From JAHJDO01 sp030671985 [NCBI: bacterium] (GTDB lineage Bacteria > JAHJDO01): a stretch of 6,840 nucleotides of DNA. A program made the translations under genes and the position numbers. The DNA lies in NCBI GenBank assembly GCA_030671985.1, contig DAOVHI010000078.1:1-6840 (forward strand), written 5' to 3'. The notes under the pieces are model-generated. The model had not been told where the DNA came from. It did not search any database and worked only from the letters and a program-made list of their open reading frames with translations. Shown piece after piece: positions 1 to 6,840 of this stretch (positions within the stretch are counted from its first letter, which is position 1; each line of letters begins with the position of its first letter).

Positions 1-214
1 CCTTTGCCTCTCCTTTCTTAAGAGGGATGCCTTCTAAGATTGAATTTGAAATTTCTGGATCATAATGTATTGATCCTATAGGTTCTATCCCTCTTATCTT
101 CAACTTTTCTCGCATAATATCCTCCATTTTTGGCGAATTAACTTTGTTCAAAATCGTCCAAGCAAATCTTGTCCTTAGATTCTTGGTTGCTTCTTTTGCT
201 TTCTCGATATTGGA
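1..214 (-). other. C-terminal segment resembling a CooC/MinD-family ATPase, fused in frame to the epimerase
   Basis: This covers residues ~303-373 of the leftmost frame. It contains FAWTILNKV (319-327), an MREKLKIRGI helix/turn (336-345), and GSIHYDPEI...LEGIPLKKGEA (349-372). In CooC/MinD-like P-loop ATPases the equivalent region has the nucleotide-base-binding NK motif, then 'G.I.yD.ei....l.G.pl'. The P-loop and switch motifs, which belong to the N-terminal half, are absent. The join lies around residues 303-313 (about positions 182-214), where both families carry a similar IEKAKE-like helix. The ATPase relationship is recognised from motif memory, not from a search. Confidence 0.6.
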
Positions 215-1120
215 TACAAATACAGGCTGATCCCCGGGACGCCAATCGCTAAAACTATATTTGATTTTTTTATCCAAGAATCTCTCAAGAAAGGAAATAA
301 GCTCCAGTAAAGACATTTTATTATCAGGTCCGCCGCCTATGTTATATATCTTCCCGGAACTTGTTTTTATATTCTCTACGGCTTTTTCATATACATCAAC
401 CAAATCATCAACAAACAATATATCTCTAACTTGTTTTCCGTCTCCATAAATCGTGATCGGTTTATTCATGGATGCAGCTATAGTAAACCACGCAACCCAG
501 CCCTGATCCTCTACGCCGAATTGCCTATACCCGTAAATACAACTCTGCCGCATAACAACAGTTCTCAGTCCGTATATTCTGAAATAATCTCTAACATACT
601 GATCGGCCGCGCCTTTTGAACAGCCATAAGGAGAATAAAAATCCAATATCCTATTTTCAGGAATTCCCTCAGGCAAAGATTCATATTCATATCTGCCATT
701 TTTTTCAATCACTTTTATGTCAGTCATTCCTCCGTAAACCTTGTTTGTGGAGGCGTAAATAAATATCGGATCAATCTTATTTTCTCTCACTGCTTCCAGA
801 AGATTGAATGTGCCAAGCGCATTTATCAGAAAATCTTCTCTTGGATCTGAAACAGAGGTTGTAACAGCTACCTGCGCGGCAAGATGAAGCACAACATCAA
901 TGCAATTTCTATCCGCGAAAATTTTTTTAACCTTTGCATAATCCCTGATGTCGCAGTCTATAAATTCAAATTCTCCCTGCTGCCTAAGCCATTCAAGATT
1001 ATTTTTAGACCCTCTTCTTGACAGATTGTCAAGAACCGACACCTCATACCCTTCGTCTATAAAGCGTTTTGCAGCGTTGCAGCCTATAAAACCGGCTCCG
1101 CCTGTTATTAGTATTTTCAA
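1..1120 (-). CDS. SDR sugar-nucleotide epimerase (CDP-paratose 2-epimerase-like) with an aberrant ATPase-like C-terminus, partial
   Basis: An open frame of 373 codons with no stop before the window edge. Residues 1-~303 form an extended-SDR nucleotide-sugar epimerase: NAD-binding GGAGFIG at 7-13, HLAAQVA near 79-85, STNKVYG at 124-130, and the catalytic YGCSK pair Tyr165/Lys169. The pattern, including DWRPGDQ at 292-298, is closest to CDP-paratose/CDP-tyvelose 2-epimerases (RfbE type), so it probably acts on a cytosolic nucleotide sugar; the exact substrate is inferred. After SNIEKAKEA (303-311) the expected LGW-type SDR ending is absent. Instead come ILNKV (323-327) and an IxxDPEI...LEGIPLKKGEA stretch typical of the C-terminus of CooC/MinD-like ATPases. 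The start is TTG at 1118-1120, overlapping the TGA of the preceding gene by 4 bp (TTGA) with no clear Shine-Dalgarno, so translation is probably coupled. The epimerase assignment is solid; the fusion needs verification. Confidence 0.85.
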   Translation of the reverse strand, partial: MKILITGGAGFIGCNAAKRFIDEGYEVSVLDNLSRRGSKNNLEWLRQQGEFEFIDCDIRDYAKVKKIFADRNCIDVVLHLAAQVAVTTSVSDPREDFLINALGTFNLLEAVRENKIDPIFIYASTNKVYGGMTDIKVIEKNGRYEYESLPEGIPENRILDFYSPYGCSKGAADQYVRDYFRIYGLRTVVMRQSCIYGYRQFGVEDQGWVAWFTIAASMNKPITIYGDGKQVRDILFVDDLVDVYEKAVENIKTSSGKIYNIGGGPDNKMSLLELISFLERFLDKKIKYSFSDWRPGDQPVFVSNIEKAKEATKNLRTRFAWTILNKVNSPKMEDIMREKLKIRGIEPIGSIHYDPEISNSILEGIPLKKGEAK

Positions 1121-2103
1121 CTTTTGTACCAGTTAATAGTTTCTCTGATCCCATCTTCCAGACTGTAAACAGGTTTCCATCCCAAGAGTTTCCCTGCCTT
1201 GACACTTGATAGGTATTGGTTGTTAATCTCCCCCTTGCTCTTACCCTTACCTTTTACAACAGGCTTCAAAGATTTGTTTCCGGAAACTGCAATAATTTTC
1301 TTTACCAGATCCAATACCTTCACAGGATTATTTGACCCGAAGTTAAACGCCTCACCCTTTATTCCTTTTTTATCAGCTTTTTCTGCGGCAATAAGATACG
1401 CATTAACCGCATCGTCAATATAGACATAATCTCTCAGCGGAGTTCCATCACTCCTGATAATTGGATCCTTATTCTGAAGAATAGATCTAATTGTATCAGG
1501 AATAATTCTGGAGAAATTCAGGTCTCCGCCTCCGTAAATATTAGCACATCTTGTTACAACAATCGGCATATCGTATGTGTTGGCATAAGTTCTCGCAAGT
1601 ATGTCAGTACATGCTTTTGATGCATCATATGGATGAAGCGCACTTAGTGAATAGTCCTCATTATATGGTAAATTCTTATGTTCTCCATATGCCTTATCAC
1701 TTGATGCTATAACCATTCTTTGGATACCTATGCTCCTTGCTGCTTCAAGAATATTCCATGTGCCACTTATATTAGACTCAAATGTAGAAATAGGAGATCT
1801 ATTTGCGATACCCACTATTGTCTGCGCTCCAATATGGAAACATGAGTCTATATTGTGTTCATTAAAGATACGAGCTATAAGTTGGTAATCTAAAAGATCA
1901 CCCTTTACAACAGCCTCAAGATTATTATAAACGCTTTTCATGTTCATTAGCGGCGATGCAGGTATCCAGTCTCTGATCAAAACCACTACTCTTGCGCCGG
2001 AGCTGACCAGCGCTTTCGTAAGCCATGAGCCTAAAAACCCGTTTGCGCCTGTAATAAATACTCTTTTATCCTTCCAAAATTTTCTATTAATTCCTTCAGC
2101 CAT
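1117..2103 (-). CDS. NAD-dependent sugar-nucleotide epimerase/dehydratase (CDP-glucose 4,6-dehydratase-like SDR)
   Basis: A complete 328-residue extended SDR. Visible motifs are an FWKDKRVFITG start, the GANGFLG dinucleotide loop (19-25), SSDKAYG (134-140), catalytic YDASK with Tyr159/Lys163, and NIYGGGD (188-194) followed by RIIPD. The FW.gKrVfiTG opening and the GGGD...RiiPD block are characteristic of the RfbG (CDP-glucose 4,6-dehydratase) branch. The normal SDR ending is present (LLGWKP at 307-312, then an amphipathic helix). The likely role is NAD-dependent oxidation/dehydration or epimerisation of a nucleotide hexose in the cytosol, for a deoxysugar of surface polysaccharide. The ATG at 2103 is chosen because AGGAGG lies 6 bases upstream. 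The gene overlaps the end of the kinase gene by 8 bp, and its stop overlaps the next start by 4 bp. The exact substrate is unproven; a dTDP- or UDP-sugar is possible. Confidence 0.88.
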   Translation of the reverse strand: MAEGINRKFWKDKRVFITGANGFLGSWLTKALVSSGARVVVLIRDWIPASPLMNMKSVYNNLEAVVKGDLLDYQLIARIFNEHNIDSCFHIGAQTIVGIANRSPISTFESNISGTWNILEAARSIGIQRMVIASSDKAYGEHKNLPYNEDYSLSALHPYDASKACTDILARTYANTYDMPIVVTRCANIYGGGDLNFSRIIPDTIRSILQNKDPIIRSDGTPLRDYVYIDDAVNAYLIAAEKADKKGIKGEAFNFGSNNPVKVLDLVKKIIAVSGNKSLKPVVKGKGKSKGEINNQYLSSVKAGKLLGWKPVYSLEDGIRETINWYKS

Positions 2104-2617
2104 GTTTTTCCTCCTGTTTCATAAGTGATACTATTTTTTTCGCGACGTCTACAGTTGATAGTTTAGAAGTGTCTATTGTATAATCTGCGGCTTTTTCGTA
2201 CTTTTCTTTTCTTTGCATGAGAACTTCTTCTACTTCATCAATAAAGGTTTTTTCATCTGTTAAAGATGGTCTGTGTGTTCCGTGTTTTATCCTCTCTGCA
2301 ATTGTAGCAACACCTGCCTTAAGCCAAAATACTTTGCTGTTTTTCCTAAGATTTGCGACGTTCTTATCACGCAAAATTACCCCTCCACCTGTGTCAATAA
2401 TGTAGTTATCAAGATTAGAAACTTGTTCCGCAATTGCAGATTCCAGATTTCTAAATTTATCCCATCCGAATTTCTCAACAATTTCTGAAATCGGAATACT
2501 TGCTCTTTTTACAATCTCCTCGTCCATATCAAATACAGAAAAACCAAACTCTTTACTCAGAATTCTGGCAACACTGGACTTACCGGTACCCCTATAACCA
2601 ATCAACACAATATTCAT
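2096..2617 (-). CDS. aroK: Shikimate kinase
   Basis: Phosphorylates shikimate to shikimate 3-phosphate with ATP, the fifth step toward chorismate, in the cytosol. The 173-residue length is typical. Numbering from the ATG at 2617: Walker A GYRGTGKSS at 7-15, the shikimate-contacting DMD at 30-32, FRNLE with the substrate Arg at 56, the glycine run TGGGV at 76-80, RPSL in the lid (Arg116), and the RKEKY segment with Arg136. All key residues are present, so a diverted gluconate-kinase-like function is unlikely. The ATG overlaps the stop of the oxidoreductase as TGATG, suggesting translational reinitiation; no strong Shine-Dalgarno is seen. A GTG one codon earlier (2620) is possible. Its partner enzyme aroE opens the same operon, three genes upstream. 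Confidence 0.93.
   Translation of the reverse strand: MNIVLIGYRGTGKSSVARILSKEFGFSVFDMDEEIVKRASIPISEIVEKFGWDKFRNLESAIAEQVSNLDNYIIDTGGGVILRDKNVANLRKNSKVFWLKAGVATIAERIKHGTHRPSLTDEKTFIDEVEEVLMQRKEKYEKAADYTIDTSKLSTVDVAKKIVSLMKQEEKHG
2110..2115 (-). promoter_or_regulatory. Shine-Dalgarno AGGAGG for the SDR dehydratase
   Basis: A perfect AGGAGG on the minus strand, 6 bases before the ATG at 2103. It lies inside the last codons of the shikimate kinase gene, so it fixes the start despite the 8 bp overlap. Confidence 0.85.
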
Positions 2618-3888
2618 CACTTGGAAAATTCTACGTGCGGGTTGTTGCCATAGACTATATTAACCGGTCTGCCTTTATGGAGAATTGACATTCTACCTGC
2701 TTCCATAACAAGTTCATTGATATAACTGTTTGCAGGTGTGGCAATTATGCCTTTTCTGTCTACGCTTTTAAGCATCTCTCTTTTTCTTCCCATAGCATCT
2801 TGCTTCGACATTTGAGCAGTTTCATTATTTATGAAGTACGCCGATTTTATAATCGCTTCAACGGAATCATATCCATAGCCAACCGGTTTCAGTCCTTCTC
2901 CCTCCCATGGAACAAGCTTGAAATAATCCGGACTTGCAAAATTATAAAGCGTGCCACCTGGGCCTGCATCCTTAACAAAGGAGTGCGTAACCCCTCTATT
3001 CTGATCATTATGTCTTATGAGAGCTCCTTTTTTCCCATCATCACAAAAGAGCGTAATCCCCTGATCATTGCTTCCCGCACCATCATCAGGATATCCGAGA
3101 CCATCAACAACGTTGAGTATACCCCCATTCTCAAATACTACTCTCCCGCTTGTCCACATATATCCAATTTTTCCATTCGGGAATTTCCCCTCTATTCCAA
3201 TGACTGAAACATTTACCGGCTTCAGTCCTGTCATAAAATAAACCTGATCCACATAATGACATCCTACATATGTGAATGGGTCGGAGTTCTCTTTAACAAA
3301 CCAGTTCTGAAAATTGGAGTTTCTATAAAACCATGGTTCCACCATTCTGGCTTCACCAATTTTAAACTCGCCAAATCTTCCTGAAGCATAGTCTCCTTTT
3401 ACAAGCAGAGCACGTCTGTCAAACCTCTTGTGATATTCTATTCCTATAAAAAGCCCTTTTTCATAAGCAAGTTTTTCAATTTCAAGTGACTGAGAATATT
3501 TCAGAACAAGCGGCTTTACACAAAGTATATGCTGAGAAGCAGCTATAGCTTCCTTTATTACGTCATAATGAAACTGATCCGGCACAGCCACAACTACCAC
3601 ATTGTAAGGATCCATTTTCCCAATAATCTCTCTGAACTTATTGGGAAACATTTTCTTCGGAGACTCAGATATATCAGGACAAGCTCTAAACCCGAAACAT
3701 GGAAATGCTTTCTTGAACGCTTCAGAATCCGCCAAATCCTTCAGTGGAGCAGAATTTAACGCGCATACAGTAATATCGTCAACTATCCCGAGACGCTTTA
3801 AATGATAAATTGACGGCAACAACTGATCATGCGTGATCATACCTCCGCCAACAATTGTCACTTTAAGTTTATTATTTTCTAAAGTCAT
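2617..3888 (-). CDS. Gfo/Idh/MocA family NAD(P)-dependent oxidoreductase
   Basis: A 423-residue protein with an N-terminal Rossmann fold (IVGGGMIT at 12-19) and the family's C-terminal alpha/beta domain. VVVVAVPDQFHYDV at 97-110 matches the usual 'd.v.v.tP...H' strand. CVKPL at 123-127 takes the place of the common EKP motif and keeps the catalytic Lys125. GCHYVDQ at 209-215 provides the His211/Asp214 pair of the 'H..D' motif. Such enzymes reversibly oxidise a hydroxyl of a sugar, inositol or sugar nucleotide. Here it sits 22 bp after an aminotransferase, so a plausible role is making the keto group that is then aminated; that is inference. The ATG at 3888 is preferred because AGGAG lies 8 bases upstream. 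A TTG at 3909 would put that ribosome site inside the gene. It runs somewhat longer than the usual 330-390 residues. Confidence 0.9.
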   Translation of the reverse strand: MTLENNKLKVTIVGGGMITHDQLLPSIYHLKRLGIVDDITVCALNSAPLKDLADSEAFKKAFPCFGFRACPDISESPKKMFPNKFREIIGKMDPYNVVVVAVPDQFHYDVIKEAIAASQHILCVKPLVLKYSQSLEIEKLAYEKGLFIGIEYHKRFDRRALLVKGDYASGRFGEFKIGEARMVEPWFYRNSNFQNWFVKENSDPFTYVGCHYVDQVYFMTGLKPVNVSVIGIEGKFPNGKIGYMWTSGRVVFENGGILNVVDGLGYPDDGAGSNDQGITLFCDDGKKGALIRHNDQNRGVTHSFVKDAGPGGTLYNFASPDYFKLVPWEGEGLKPVGYGYDSVEAIIKSAYFINNETAQMSKQDAMGRKREMLKSVDRKGIIATPANSYINELVMEAGRMSILHKGRPVNIVYGNNPHVEFSK

Positions 3889-3896
3889 GATTTTTT

Positions 3897-3901
3897 CTCC
3901 T
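3897..3901 (-). promoter_or_regulatory. Shine-Dalgarno AGGAG for the Gfo/Idh/MocA oxidoreductase
   Basis: AGGAG on the minus strand, 8 bases before the ATG at 3888. It decides that start over the in-frame TTG at 3909. Confidence 0.75.
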
Positions 3902-3910
3902 AAGTTCAAC

Positions 3911-5287
3911 TTATCTCATTACTTTATCAAGTGTTTCTTTAATACCTGCTTTTCCATATAAGCCGTCATCTATCGCCTCCTTTGTTATACAAAGCGGCGG
4001 GCAAAATTTGATAGCGCCGTAACCTTTGCCTACAGGGGCAAAGAACAAGTTTCCGGAAAGAAAACACTGTTCACAAAACTTAAACGCTGTATCTGCATCA
4101 GGAGTAAGGTTTTCCCTGTTATCAAAAAAGAGCATACCTATAACCAGCCCGATTCCGCCAATCTCAATTCTTTCTCTATATGGTCCTGTAATTTTAGTTA
4201 TCTGCTCTTTCAGATAGTTACCAATATTTGCTGCATTCTCAATTAAACCTTCTTCAAGCATTACTTCTATGCTTGCAATAGATGCAATTGAGGGCAAAGG
4301 ACTTCCTGTGTGAGTGCTTGTCATTTCTCCAGGACCATACTGATCCATGTACTCAGCTTTTCCAATAACAGCTGAAAGCGGAAGCGAACTTGTAATACCC
4401 TTACCACAGCAAACCATATCAGGAACTACTCCATAATGCTCAAAAGCAAAAAGCTTGCCTGTTCTTCCAAAACCTGCCTGCACCTCATCAAAAATAAGCG
4501 CTGCATCGTTCTCGTCACACCATTCCCTTAAAGCCTTAGCATACTCAACAGGCATAAGTTTTGCCTCTCTCCCCTGAAAGGTCTCGACAATAACACCTGC
4601 AATATCACATGAAGCAATGTTTAGCTCCTGTAACTTTTTTGTAAACACATCGAAGCCTTTGTCTTTTACTTCAATGCTTCCAGGGAAAGGCACCTGCGCA
4701 AAATATTGATTTTCGTCAACCCATTCAGAACCTCCAAGCACACCGCCTGATAATTGAGCTCCGTATGTTCTGCCGTGAAAAGCACCCTGAAAGCTAATAA
4801 TGTAACGTTTTTTTGAATTAATTCTTATTCCATGAGTTCTTGCAAGCTTTATGGAAACTTCTGTAGCCTCAGAACCTGTTGTAAGAAGAAATACCTTATT
4901 CAATTCTGATGGAGAAATTTCAATAAGCCTTTCAGCAAGATTTGCTCTTACTTCATTGGGAAAACAATACGTATGAAGAGGCCCTTTTGTTTGAAGATAA
5001 TCTGCTAAAACTTTTTTTATTTTTGGATGCCCATGTCCTGCACTCGTAACAAGTACGCCCGAACTCCAGTCCAGCCACTTATTTCCATATCCATCCTCAA
5101 CATTGACCCCTTCTGCTTTTTGCCATACTACAGGGGCTTGCCCTCTCATTGACCTTGATTCATTGGTTCTGAGTTTGTTTAGCAGAGGGACAGACCCAGG
5201 AGCTGGAATCTTGGTAATAATTTTTCTGTAAGGTGTTTCTATAAATGGAACTTTTCTTGGTTCAAGCGAAAATACTTTTGCTGCCAC
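3911..5287 (-). CDS. Class III PLP-dependent aminotransferase
   Basis: A 458-residue fold-type I aminotransferase of the acetylornithine/GABA aminotransferase family. Visible motifs are TTGSEATE (136-143) for the PLP phosphate, GAFHGRTYGA (168-177), the PLP-ring Asp267 in IFDEVQAGFGRTG (265-277), the Schiff-base Lys296 in CCGKGI, and THTGSPL (325-331) in place of the common THGGNP. It transfers an amino group between an amino donor and a keto or aldehyde substrate in the cytosol. The substrate is not recognisable, and the usual 'VRG.GL' carboxylate-binding Arg is Gly377 here (EIGGIGL). The start is GTG at 5287, 5 bases after AGGAG; the stop lies 22 bp before the oxidoreductase. Linkage to that enzyme and to nucleotide-sugar genes suggests amination of a sugar- or polyol-derived carbonyl (inference). 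Annotation as GabT or ArgD would be over-specific. Confidence 0.92.
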   Translation of the reverse strand: MAAKVFSLEPRKVPFIETPYRKIITKIPAPGSVPLLNKLRTNESRSMRGQAPVVWQKAEGVNVEDGYGNKWLDWSSGVLVTSAGHGHPKIKKVLADYLQTKGPLHTYCFPNEVRANLAERLIEISPSELNKVFLLTTGSEATEVSIKLARTHGIRINSKKRYIISFQGAFHGRTYGAQLSGGVLGGSEWVDENQYFAQVPFPGSIEVKDKGFDVFTKKLQELNIASCDIAGVIVETFQGREAKLMPVEYAKALREWCDENDAALIFDEVQAGFGRTGKLFAFEHYGVVPDMVCCGKGITSSLPLSAVIGKAEYMDQYGPGEMTSTHTGSPLPSIASIASIEVMLEEGLIENAANIGNYLKEQITKITGPYRERIEIGGIGLVIGMLFFDNRENLTPDADTAFKFCEQCFLSGNLFFAPVGKGYGAIKFCPPLCITKEAIDDGLYGKAGIKETLDKVMR

Positions 5288-5292
5288 GTTGA

Positions 5293-5297
5293 CTCCT
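5293..5297 (-). promoter_or_regulatory. Shine-Dalgarno AGGAG for the aminotransferase GTG start
   Basis: AGGAG on the minus strand, 5 bases before the GTG at 5287, in the 11 bp gap after aroE. It supports the non-ATG start. Confidence 0.75.
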
Positions 5298-5298
5298 T

Positions 5299-6138
5299 TC
5301 AGTTAATTAATAGAGTTTTCCTCATCACTTTGATTGGGGCGGTTTTGCCCGTCCAAAGTTCAAATTGCAATGCTGCTTGATAGATGAACATGTCAATTCC
5401 TGATACTACAACACATCCTTTCTCCTCAGCATCTCTGACAAGACGTGTCTTAATAGGATTGTAAATAATGTCAAAAACCGTCAATGAACTTCTTAATAAT
5501 CTCTTTGAAACAGGAGTTTTATCAATTTTTGGATGCATTCCAACAGGTGTGCATTGTATTAAAATATCAACATCCTGCAATCGCTTTTCAAGAGACTTCT
5601 CATCTATAATGAACCCGTCTGGATGCTTATTATCTAACATAGTAATATCCTGAACCAGTTTATATATCTCTTCTTGTATGACTCCGCCAATTACAAGAGA
5701 TTCGGGTTTTTCTTTCATAATAAGTGTAAATGCAATTGCCCGCGCGGCGCCGCCAGAGCCTAAAATTAAGATTCTTTTACCCTTAATATCAACACCCTTT
5801 TCCTTTAACGAACGTACTGCTGCAGTTCCATCAGTTGTGTATCCCTTTAGACTGCCGTTTTCATTAACAATGGTATTGACCGAGCCTATTCTATCTGCAA
5901 CTTCGTCAATCTCGTCAAGATACTTTGTTACTTCTACTTTATGAGGAATCGTAACACTCAAACCTCTTATTCCTAAGCCCCTTACCCCAGCCATTGCAGA
6001 GAATACATCTTTAACTTTAAATGCAACATAAACATAATTAAGCCCAAGATGCTCAAACGCCGCATTATGTATAGCGGGAGATAGGGAATGTTCTATCGGA
6101 TTTCCAATAACAGCACAAAGTTGAGTTTTTGTATCCAT
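5299..6138 (-). CDS. aroE: Shikimate 5-dehydrogenase
   Basis: Reduces 3-dehydroshikimate to shikimate, the fourth step of the chorismate pathway, in the cytosol. From the ATG at 6138 it has 279 residues, the family norm. Motifs: IGNPIEHSLSP (11-21) with the shikimate-binding serines, SVTIPHK (61-67) with catalytic Lys67, SVNTI (86-90), TTDG with catalytic Asp103, the Rossmann loop LGSGGAARA (126-134), CTPVGM (196-201), YNPIKT (226-231) and GIDMFIYQAA (247-256). The basic NRT motif that usually follows the second Rossmann strand and binds the NADP phosphate is missing; the sequence there is VIGGVIQ (149-155), so cofactor preference may differ. The frame stays open to an ATG at 6222, but those 28 extra residues match nothing in the family, precede the normal AroE N-terminus and cover a promoter. 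It is the first gene of the operon. Confidence 0.93.
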   Translation of the reverse strand: MDTKTQLCAVIGNPIEHSLSPAIHNAAFEHLGLNYVYVAFKVKDVFSAMAGVRGLGIRGLSVTIPHKVEVTKYLDEIDEVADRIGSVNTIVNENGSLKGYTTDGTAAVRSLKEKGVDIKGKRILILGSGGAARAIAFTLIMKEKPESLVIGGVIQEEIYKLVQDITMLDNKHPDGFIIDEKSLEKRLQDVDILIQCTPVGMHPKIDKTPVSKRLLRSSLTVFDIIYNPIKTRLVRDAEEKGCVVVSGIDMFIYQAALQFELWTGKTAPIKVMRKTLLIN

Positions 6139-6144
6139 GCATCC

Positions 6145-6173
6145 TATATAGCATAATGTTCCGTGGATATCAA
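6145..6173 (-). promoter_or_regulatory. Sigma70-type promoter of the aroE operon, extended -10, probably leaderless
   Basis: On the minus strand TTGATA (6168-6173) is followed after 17 bp by TATATA (6145-6150), with TG one base before the -10 hexamer (TGC-TATATA). Transcription is expected 6-8 bases downstream, on or next to the aroE ATG at 6138. The mRNA would then have no room for a Shine-Dalgarno. This is prediction from consensus only. Confidence 0.6.
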
Positions 6174-6213
6174 CTTGGGAACGGCCATTAATTTGATAAA
6201 CCAAGGATATTTC

Positions 6214-6241
6214 TTTACACATTTTTATTTTTAGATATAAT
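6214..6241 (+). promoter_or_regulatory. Sigma70-type promoter of the ferredoxin-FAH genes
   Basis: TTTACA (6214-6219, 5 of 6 consensus) and a perfect TATAAT (6236-6241) separated by 16 bp in an A/T-rich stretch. The start of transcription would be near 6248, giving a leader of about 25 bases that contains the ferredoxin ribosome site. It is arranged back to back with the aroE promoter. Confidence 0.7.
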
Positions 6242-6273: not shown

Positions 6274-6462
6274 ATGAAAGTTAGTATCAATAAAGAAGAT
6301 TGTGTTGGATGCGGGATATGCGCGGACGACTGTTCCGATGTTTTTGAAATGCCAGAAGATGTTGCTGTAGTTAAAGCGGAAGAAGTGCCGGAAAACTTGC
6401 TTAATGCAGTGAAAGAAGCCGCTAAAAACTGTCCGGTTGATGCAATCATTATTTCAGAATAA
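6274..6462 (+). CDS. Small single-[4Fe-4S] ferredoxin
   Basis: A 62-residue low-potential electron carrier of the Thermotoga/Pyrococcus monocluster type. The ligand pattern is Cys10, Cys13 and Cys16 (CVGCGIC) plus Cys53 in NCPVDAI. The second cluster motif of 2[4Fe-4S] ferredoxins has degenerated, leaving only Cys53 as the distal ligand. An additional Cys20 occupies the place that in Thermotoga-like ferredoxins pairs with a second cysteine in a disulfide; no partner is present here. The protein is strongly acidic and soluble, as expected for the family. It has a strong promoter and a good ribosome site, and lies divergent to aroE. The redox partner cannot be inferred; the FAH-family gene overlapping or following it is probably co-transcribed. 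Confidence 0.93.
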
Positions 6463-6840
6463 AAAGTTGAAAAAATACTCAAGATCCTCAATTGATGCAA
6501 GTCTACTTGTTCCGTGTTTACCAAGCAAAATAGTTGCTGTGGGACTCAATTATATCGACCATGCAAAAGAACTTGGGATGAAGGTGCCTGACGAACCTGT
6601 TTTATTTATGAAACCAAGCACTTCCGTTATAGGTCCGGACGATAATATTATCTATCCCAAAATGAGCAGCCGCGTGGATTATGAGGCGGAATTGGCAGTA
6701 GTAATTAAAGATAAAACGCAAAACATTGAACCCGAAGAAGCGCATCTTCATATATTGGGATATACATGCTTAAATGATGTTACTGCGCGGGATCTTCAGA
6801 AAAAAGACGGGCAGTGGACAAGGGCAAAATCATTTGATAC
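6440..6840 (+). CDS. Fumarylacetoacetate hydrolase (FAH) family protein, 5' part, short form
   Basis: The first 133 codons of a gene cut by the right edge. The fold is clear: [19 protein letters not shown] (28-46), [12 protein letters not shown] (55-66), [10 protein letters not shown] (80-89) with metal ligands Glu82 and Glu84, [10 protein letters not shown] (111-120) with metal ligand Asp113, and WTRAKSFD (126-133). Family members are Mg/Mn-dependent hydrolases or decarboxylases of acylpyruvates, oxaloacetate or catechol-pathway intermediates; the substrate is open. The N-terminal domain of about 50 residues seen in long members is missing, as in the short E. coli YcgM type. The start is uncertain. 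The ATG at 6440 overlaps the ferredoxin by 23 bp, while a TTG at 6467 (4 bp after the ferredoxin stop) would give nine fewer residues. Neither has a recognisable Shine-Dalgarno. Confidence 0.88.

What the first reader, a model, noticed from the sequence alone, without database searches (positions are those of the whole stretch)
1..214. In-frame chimera: SDR epimerase running into the C-terminus of a CooC/MinD-like ATPase
The leftmost frame is a canonical CDP-paratose 2-epimerase-like protein to about residue 310. Exactly where the family continues with 'ELGW.P...' it switches to ILNKV and a D-P-E-I...LEGIPLKKGEA pattern that looks like the C-terminal part of a CooC/MinD ATPase. The frame stays open and the join falls at an IEKAKE-like helix common to both. 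Either a deletion fused two genes, a novel bifunctional or truncated protein exists, or two genomic regions were mis-joined in assembly. Both partners look incomplete: the epimerase lacks its last ~30 residues and the ATPase lacks its P-loop half.
Basis: partly seen in the sequence, partly recalled or inferred. Interest (0 to 1): 0.72.

Follow-up and report, generated by a model that had tools for sequence, protein, structure and literature searches.

The report
Assembly misjoin at a contig end
The apparent fusion of a sugar epimerase with a piece of an ATPase is most likely an assembly error at the end of a metagenome contig; the epimerase's normal ending is present on another contig of the same genome, so there is probably no new fusion protein here.

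Summary
In detail: on the minus strand the epimerase frame (window 1120 down to 190) runs in frame into 63 residues resembling the C-terminal part of a CooC/MinD-like ATPase. It is very probably not a biological fusion. The window is an entire contig (C114) of a 152-contig genome. Its bases 190-258 are identical to the first 69 bases of contig C17. C17 continues with the epimerase's ordinary C-terminus and stop, then flippase, glycosyltransferase and radical-SAM genes. C114 to base 190 plus C17 reads as a 339-residue epimerase, as long as the orthologs in two congeneric genomes, which carry the same gene order through the join. All 82 related loci examined have the native C-terminus; none has the ATPase tail. 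DNA similarity of the chimeric strand to three congeners stops 0 to 7 bases from the join. A CooC-like full-length query found no P-loop half for the tail in this genome or four congeners, so the tail's source is unknown. Window 1-189 is most likely a wrong branch at a contig end. A rare real recombinant strain cannot be excluded without reads.

The parts
190..1120 (-). CDP-tyvelose/paratose 2-epimerase-like SDR gene, genuine part; the last 29 residues and the stop are on contig C17
   Evidence: Pfam Epimerase 1e-52; 9rl0/1orr; orthologs G002 89%, G003 87%, G001 91% over 201 residues; joined protein 339 aa
190..258 (-). 69 bases identical to the first 69 bases of contig C17 (reverse orientation); the paths part at 189/190
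1..189 (-). Probable wrong branch: fragment of the C-terminal half of a CooC/MinD-like ATPase, source unknown
   Evidence: CbiA 70-125 E 8.3e-4, below cut-off; G175 relative 40% E 5.1e-8; alignment; window 1-1500 has no DNA match in the own genome at E <= 0.001 besides itself and C17:1-69

Best explanation
Window 1-189 is a wrong branch at the left end of contig C114. The true gene continues from base 190 into contig C17, giving an ordinary 339-residue CDP-tyvelose/paratose 2-epimerase-like protein followed by a flippase. Shown: the exact overlap, the native ending on C17, the conserved gene order in two congeners. Inferred: the assembler passed from the epimerase to a CooC-like ATPase gene through a short string that the two genes share around IEKAKE, which would also explain why the join is in frame; the true C114-C17 link was not made because the surviving overlap (69 bases) is shorter than the apparent assembly k-mer of 141.
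For: Window 190-258 = C17:1-69 exactly. C17 goes on with 29 residues, ELLWKPKVGVEAGIEKLSNWVGKNRTLFK, and a stop; C17's 51-residue piece matches the end of Pfam GDP_Man_Dehyd, positions 297-331 of 332, E 1.3e-4, below its cut-off. Joined protein is 339 aa; G002 and G003 orthologs are 339 aa from the same start residue. G002 and G003 carry SDR2, epimerase, flippase, glycosyltransferase and radical SAM in one run, matching C114 then C17 at 65-89% identity. 82 of 82 loci have the native C-terminal motif; a native-tail query hits 73 of 82 and the ATPase tail 0 of 82 at E <= 0.001. The chimeric strand's DNA match to congeners ends at base 204 (G002, G003) or 211 (G001) of 400, the join being at 211, whereas the C114+C17 path aligns on past it in all three. 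The join lies 189 bases from a contig end. One pair of sampled contig ends (C5/C7) shares exactly its terminal 141 bases, which suggests k = 141.
Against: No reads were available, so coverage and spanning pairs were not tested. The source of the ATPase piece was not found, so the shared string at the join is inferred, not measured. The C17 overlap is 69 bases and not a full k-mer, so C17 is attached by identity and gene order, not by a graph edge. G+C of 1-189 (0.36) is not unusual for this contig (18% of 189-base windows are as low or lower), so composition does not mark it as foreign. Congener G004 has no close ortholog to compare (best 37%).
Confidence: 0.93

Rival explanations
1. A real strain variant: in part of the population a recombination or deletion fused the epimerase to an ATPase gene, while C17 represents the unrearranged strain.
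For: Both paths from base 190 are present in the bin, the frame is open, and composition is not odd.
Against: No relative with the join in 82 loci. The join is 189 bases from a contig end. No donor gene was found: a full-length CooC-like query hit the own genome only at the tail itself and at a P-loop stretch of a 618-residue frame. The own genome has other CbiA-family frames (7 matches with the tail, on C81, C65, C9, C122, C78 and C114), but in the 46 loci then held the tail matched nothing but itself better than E 0.17.
Confidence: 0.05
2. A novel bifunctional or alternative-ending epimerase fixed in this species.
For: Open frame of 373 residues without a stop before the contig end.
Against: The native ending with its stop is in the same genome with an exact 69-base overlap; the ATPase part carries no P-loop; congeners G001, G002 and G003 have the plain C-terminus.
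Confidence: 0.02

Closest known systems
CDP-tyvelose/CDP-paratose 2-epimerase (PDB 1orr, 9rl0; extended SDR family)
   Same: Residues 1-308 match over nearly their whole length (2.9e-86 and 2.4e-103); with C17 the length and C-terminus agree with relatives
   Different: Only the window's last 63 residues differ, and these are the probable misjoined piece
CooC, CO dehydrogenase/acetyl-CoA synthase accessory ATPase (PDB 3kje)
   Same: The tail aligns to the C-terminal half of a G175 protein whose best solved relative is CooC
   Different: The tail has no P-loop half and no gene of its own here; the 71-residue piece itself matched no solved structure at E <= 1

Membership tests
CDP-tyvelose/paratose 2-epimerase (extended SDR) | NAD-binding epimerase domain over its full length | tested here: met
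   Pfam Epimerase positions 1-240 of 240, 1e-52; GGAGFIG near the N-terminus (the motif's meaning is recalled)
CDP-tyvelose/paratose 2-epimerase (extended SDR) | C-terminal end with E-L-x-W-x-P, as in relatives | tested here: met
   Not in the window, but on C17; 82 of 82 related loci have it by a loose pattern and by eye
CDP-tyvelose/paratose 2-epimerase (extended SDR) | Catalytic activity on a CDP-sugar | not testable with these tools
   Sequence only; no NCBIfam model passed its cut-off among the 25 shown of 122
CooC/MinD-like ATPase (window 1-189) | Deviant Walker A P-loop | tested here: not met
   Absent from the 63 residues; the CbiA match covers only profile positions 70-125
CooC/MinD-like ATPase (window 1-189) | C-terminal half similar to CbiA/CooC | tested here: inconclusive
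   CbiA E 8.3e-4, below cut-off; G175 CooC-like protein E 5.1e-8, 40%

The most novel reading that the evidence does not exclude
A minority strain in the sampled population really carries an epimerase whose last 29 residues were replaced by an ATPase C-terminus through recombination at a short shared string.
Probability: 0.04. Interest if true: 0.3.

Novelty: not a real feature. Interest (0 to 1): 0.05.

Why it matters
It matters only as a caution: an in-frame chimera within 200 bases of a metagenome contig end can look like a new fusion protein. Matching the end of the contig against the other contigs of the same genome exposed it here in one search.

Tried and rejected
Searches for a relative of the tail that found none: 96 genomes besides the own at E <= 0.001 with the 64-residue tail, genome contigs (100 stretches matched a pattern, none confirmed), viral contigs (16 stretches, none confirmed), plasmids at E <= 0.01, solved structures at E <= 1. 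A wider search of 385 genomes (own included) with the 71-residue piece at E <= 0.1 gave 24 genomes with a match, the own included. Besides the own, G175 is the only match below E 1e-4; the next are 1.3e-4 (G327), 4.0e-4 (G230) and 9.5e-4 (G210). Of five hit loci aligned, L214 (G210) does not look like an ATPase and is taken as a chance match.

Base composition as a sign of foreign origin: uninformative. The 17-base string at the join occurs once more exactly in the genome, on C127, and with one mismatch on C17; the C127 flanks are unrelated, so C127 is not the tail's source.

Contig-end overlap test: 84 ends (both ends of 40 contigs plus C17 and C114) were compared. One pair shares its terminal 141 bases (C5/C7, confirmed) and one pair 69 bases (C17/C114). 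One search also printed a 25-base match between the two ends of one contig; one search showed that both these ends read as N, so the match is meaningless, I dropped it, and 82 ends were informative. The test covers ends of 42 of 152 contigs, against each other and against nine held own-genome loci, so it is a sample; that k was 141 is an inference from one pair.

Literature: one search (8 papers listed); I saw the listing and the starts of the abstracts only, and take nothing from them. The taxonomy look-up was not used. No structure prediction was run.

Full report
What was claimed. The frame is there: 373 residues from 1120 to 2, open at the contig end. The first 308 residues match Pfam Epimerase at 1e-52 and solved CDP-tyvelose 2-epimerases 9rl0 and 1orr. 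The last 65 match only Pfam CbiA, weakly (8.3e-4, below its cut-off, profile 70-125 of 125). In a search of 385 genomes the best relative of the tail outside the own genome is a 270-residue frame of genome G175, 40% identity, E 5.1e-8. That protein carries GKGGSGKS near its N-terminus, and its best solved relative is CooC 3kje.

Where the window lies. The join is therefore 189 bases from a contig end. A DNA search of the own genome with window 1-1500 gave one match besides itself: bases 190-258 equal C17:1-69, reversed, at 100% (checked letter by letter). After that the paths part: C17 reads AACTTTTGTG where the window's minus strand reads CAACCAAGAA.

What C17 carries. It continues in frame with 29 residues, ELLWKPKVGVEAGIEKLSNWVGKNRTLFK, and a stop. 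C17's 51-residue epimerase piece matches the last positions of Pfam GDP_Man_Dehyd (297-331 of 332, E 1.3e-4, below its cut-off). Then follow a 414-residue flippase (Polysacc_synt), a glycosyltransferase of family 2 and a radical-SAM/B12-binding protein. C114 down to base 190 plus C17 from base 70 reads as 339 residues. The orthologs of congeners G002 and G003, read from the same start residue, are also 339, and the partial ortholog of G001 ends alike. The fourth congener, G004, has no close ortholog (best 37%).

Gene order. In G002 and G003, one run of DNA holds SDR2, epimerase, flippase, glycosyltransferase and radical SAM; C114 supplies the first two and C17 the rest (SDR2 86-88%, epimerase 87-89%, C17's epimerase end 65-71%, flippase 86-87%, glycosyltransferase 77-78%, radical SAM 87-89%). 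G001's contig holds the epimerase; of the other C17 genes only 24 residues of the radical-SAM protein were reported there at over 50% identity, so G001 supports the C-terminus but not the full gene order. For 400 bases of the chimeric strand, similarity to G002, G003 and G001 stops at base 204, 204 and 211, where the join is at 211; the C114+C17 path aligns on past the join in all three.

Relatives. These 80 plus the G002 and G003 loci were examined: 82 of 82 have the native C-terminal motif, 81 reach a stop (29 to 56 residues after the aligned core, median 33) and one, L114, runs off its contig. A native-tail query hits 73 of 82 and the ATPase tail 0 of 82 at E <= 0.001. The motif pattern was loose; the printed C-termini were also read by eye. 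The 82 are loci, not independent species: L111 and L123 are from one genome, and L122 appears to be G001's contig (same length and match position).

The tail's source. With a full CooC-like query (G175), the own genome gives only the tail itself and a 47-residue P-loop stretch in a 618-residue frame of C81; G003 and G004 give one such stretch each, and G001 and G002 nothing at E <= 0.001. Other CbiA-family frames exist: 7 matches in the own genome, the tail included, and 5 to 8 in each congener. Against the 46 loci then held, the tail matched nothing but its own copies better than E 0.17. So no intact donor was found in this bin (92% complete) or in four congeners. Composition does not decide the matter. 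The tail may come from another organism of the same sample (inference).

How the misjoin probably arose (inference). In the alignment with the G175 ATPase, IEKAKE falls in a stretch that precedes the ILNK strand in the ATPase as well (that it is a helix in both families is recalled, not computed), so both genes may share a short string there, which would also keep the frame. Among the contig ends sampled, C5 and C7 share exactly their terminal 141 bases, as a k = 141 assembly would leave them; the C17/C114 overlap of 69 is shorter, which would explain why the right link was not made and C114 was not broken. Reads were not available, so this route is not shown.

Verdict. Very probably not a biological fusion, with confidence 0.93. 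A rare real recombinant is not excluded (about 0.04 to 0.05).

Noticed in passing
window 2096-6222: Shikimate kinase and shikimate dehydrogenase genes are separated here by a Gfo/Idh/MocA-type gene and a class III aminotransferase. In G003 the aroE match (L048:1-561, cut by the start of the stretch) and the aroK match (L048:1331-1843) lie about 770 bases apart, and no match over 50% identity to the two intervening genes was printed for that 14-kb stretch.
   Followed up: no
G000 contigs C5 (start) and C7 (end); loci L134 and L176: The two contig ends share exactly 141 terminal bases and then differ, suggesting an assembly with k = 141.
   Followed up: partly
window 6274-6838: A small ferredoxin (Fer4_15) directly followed by the start of a fumarylacetoacetate hydrolase-family gene that is cut by the contig end.
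   Followed up: no
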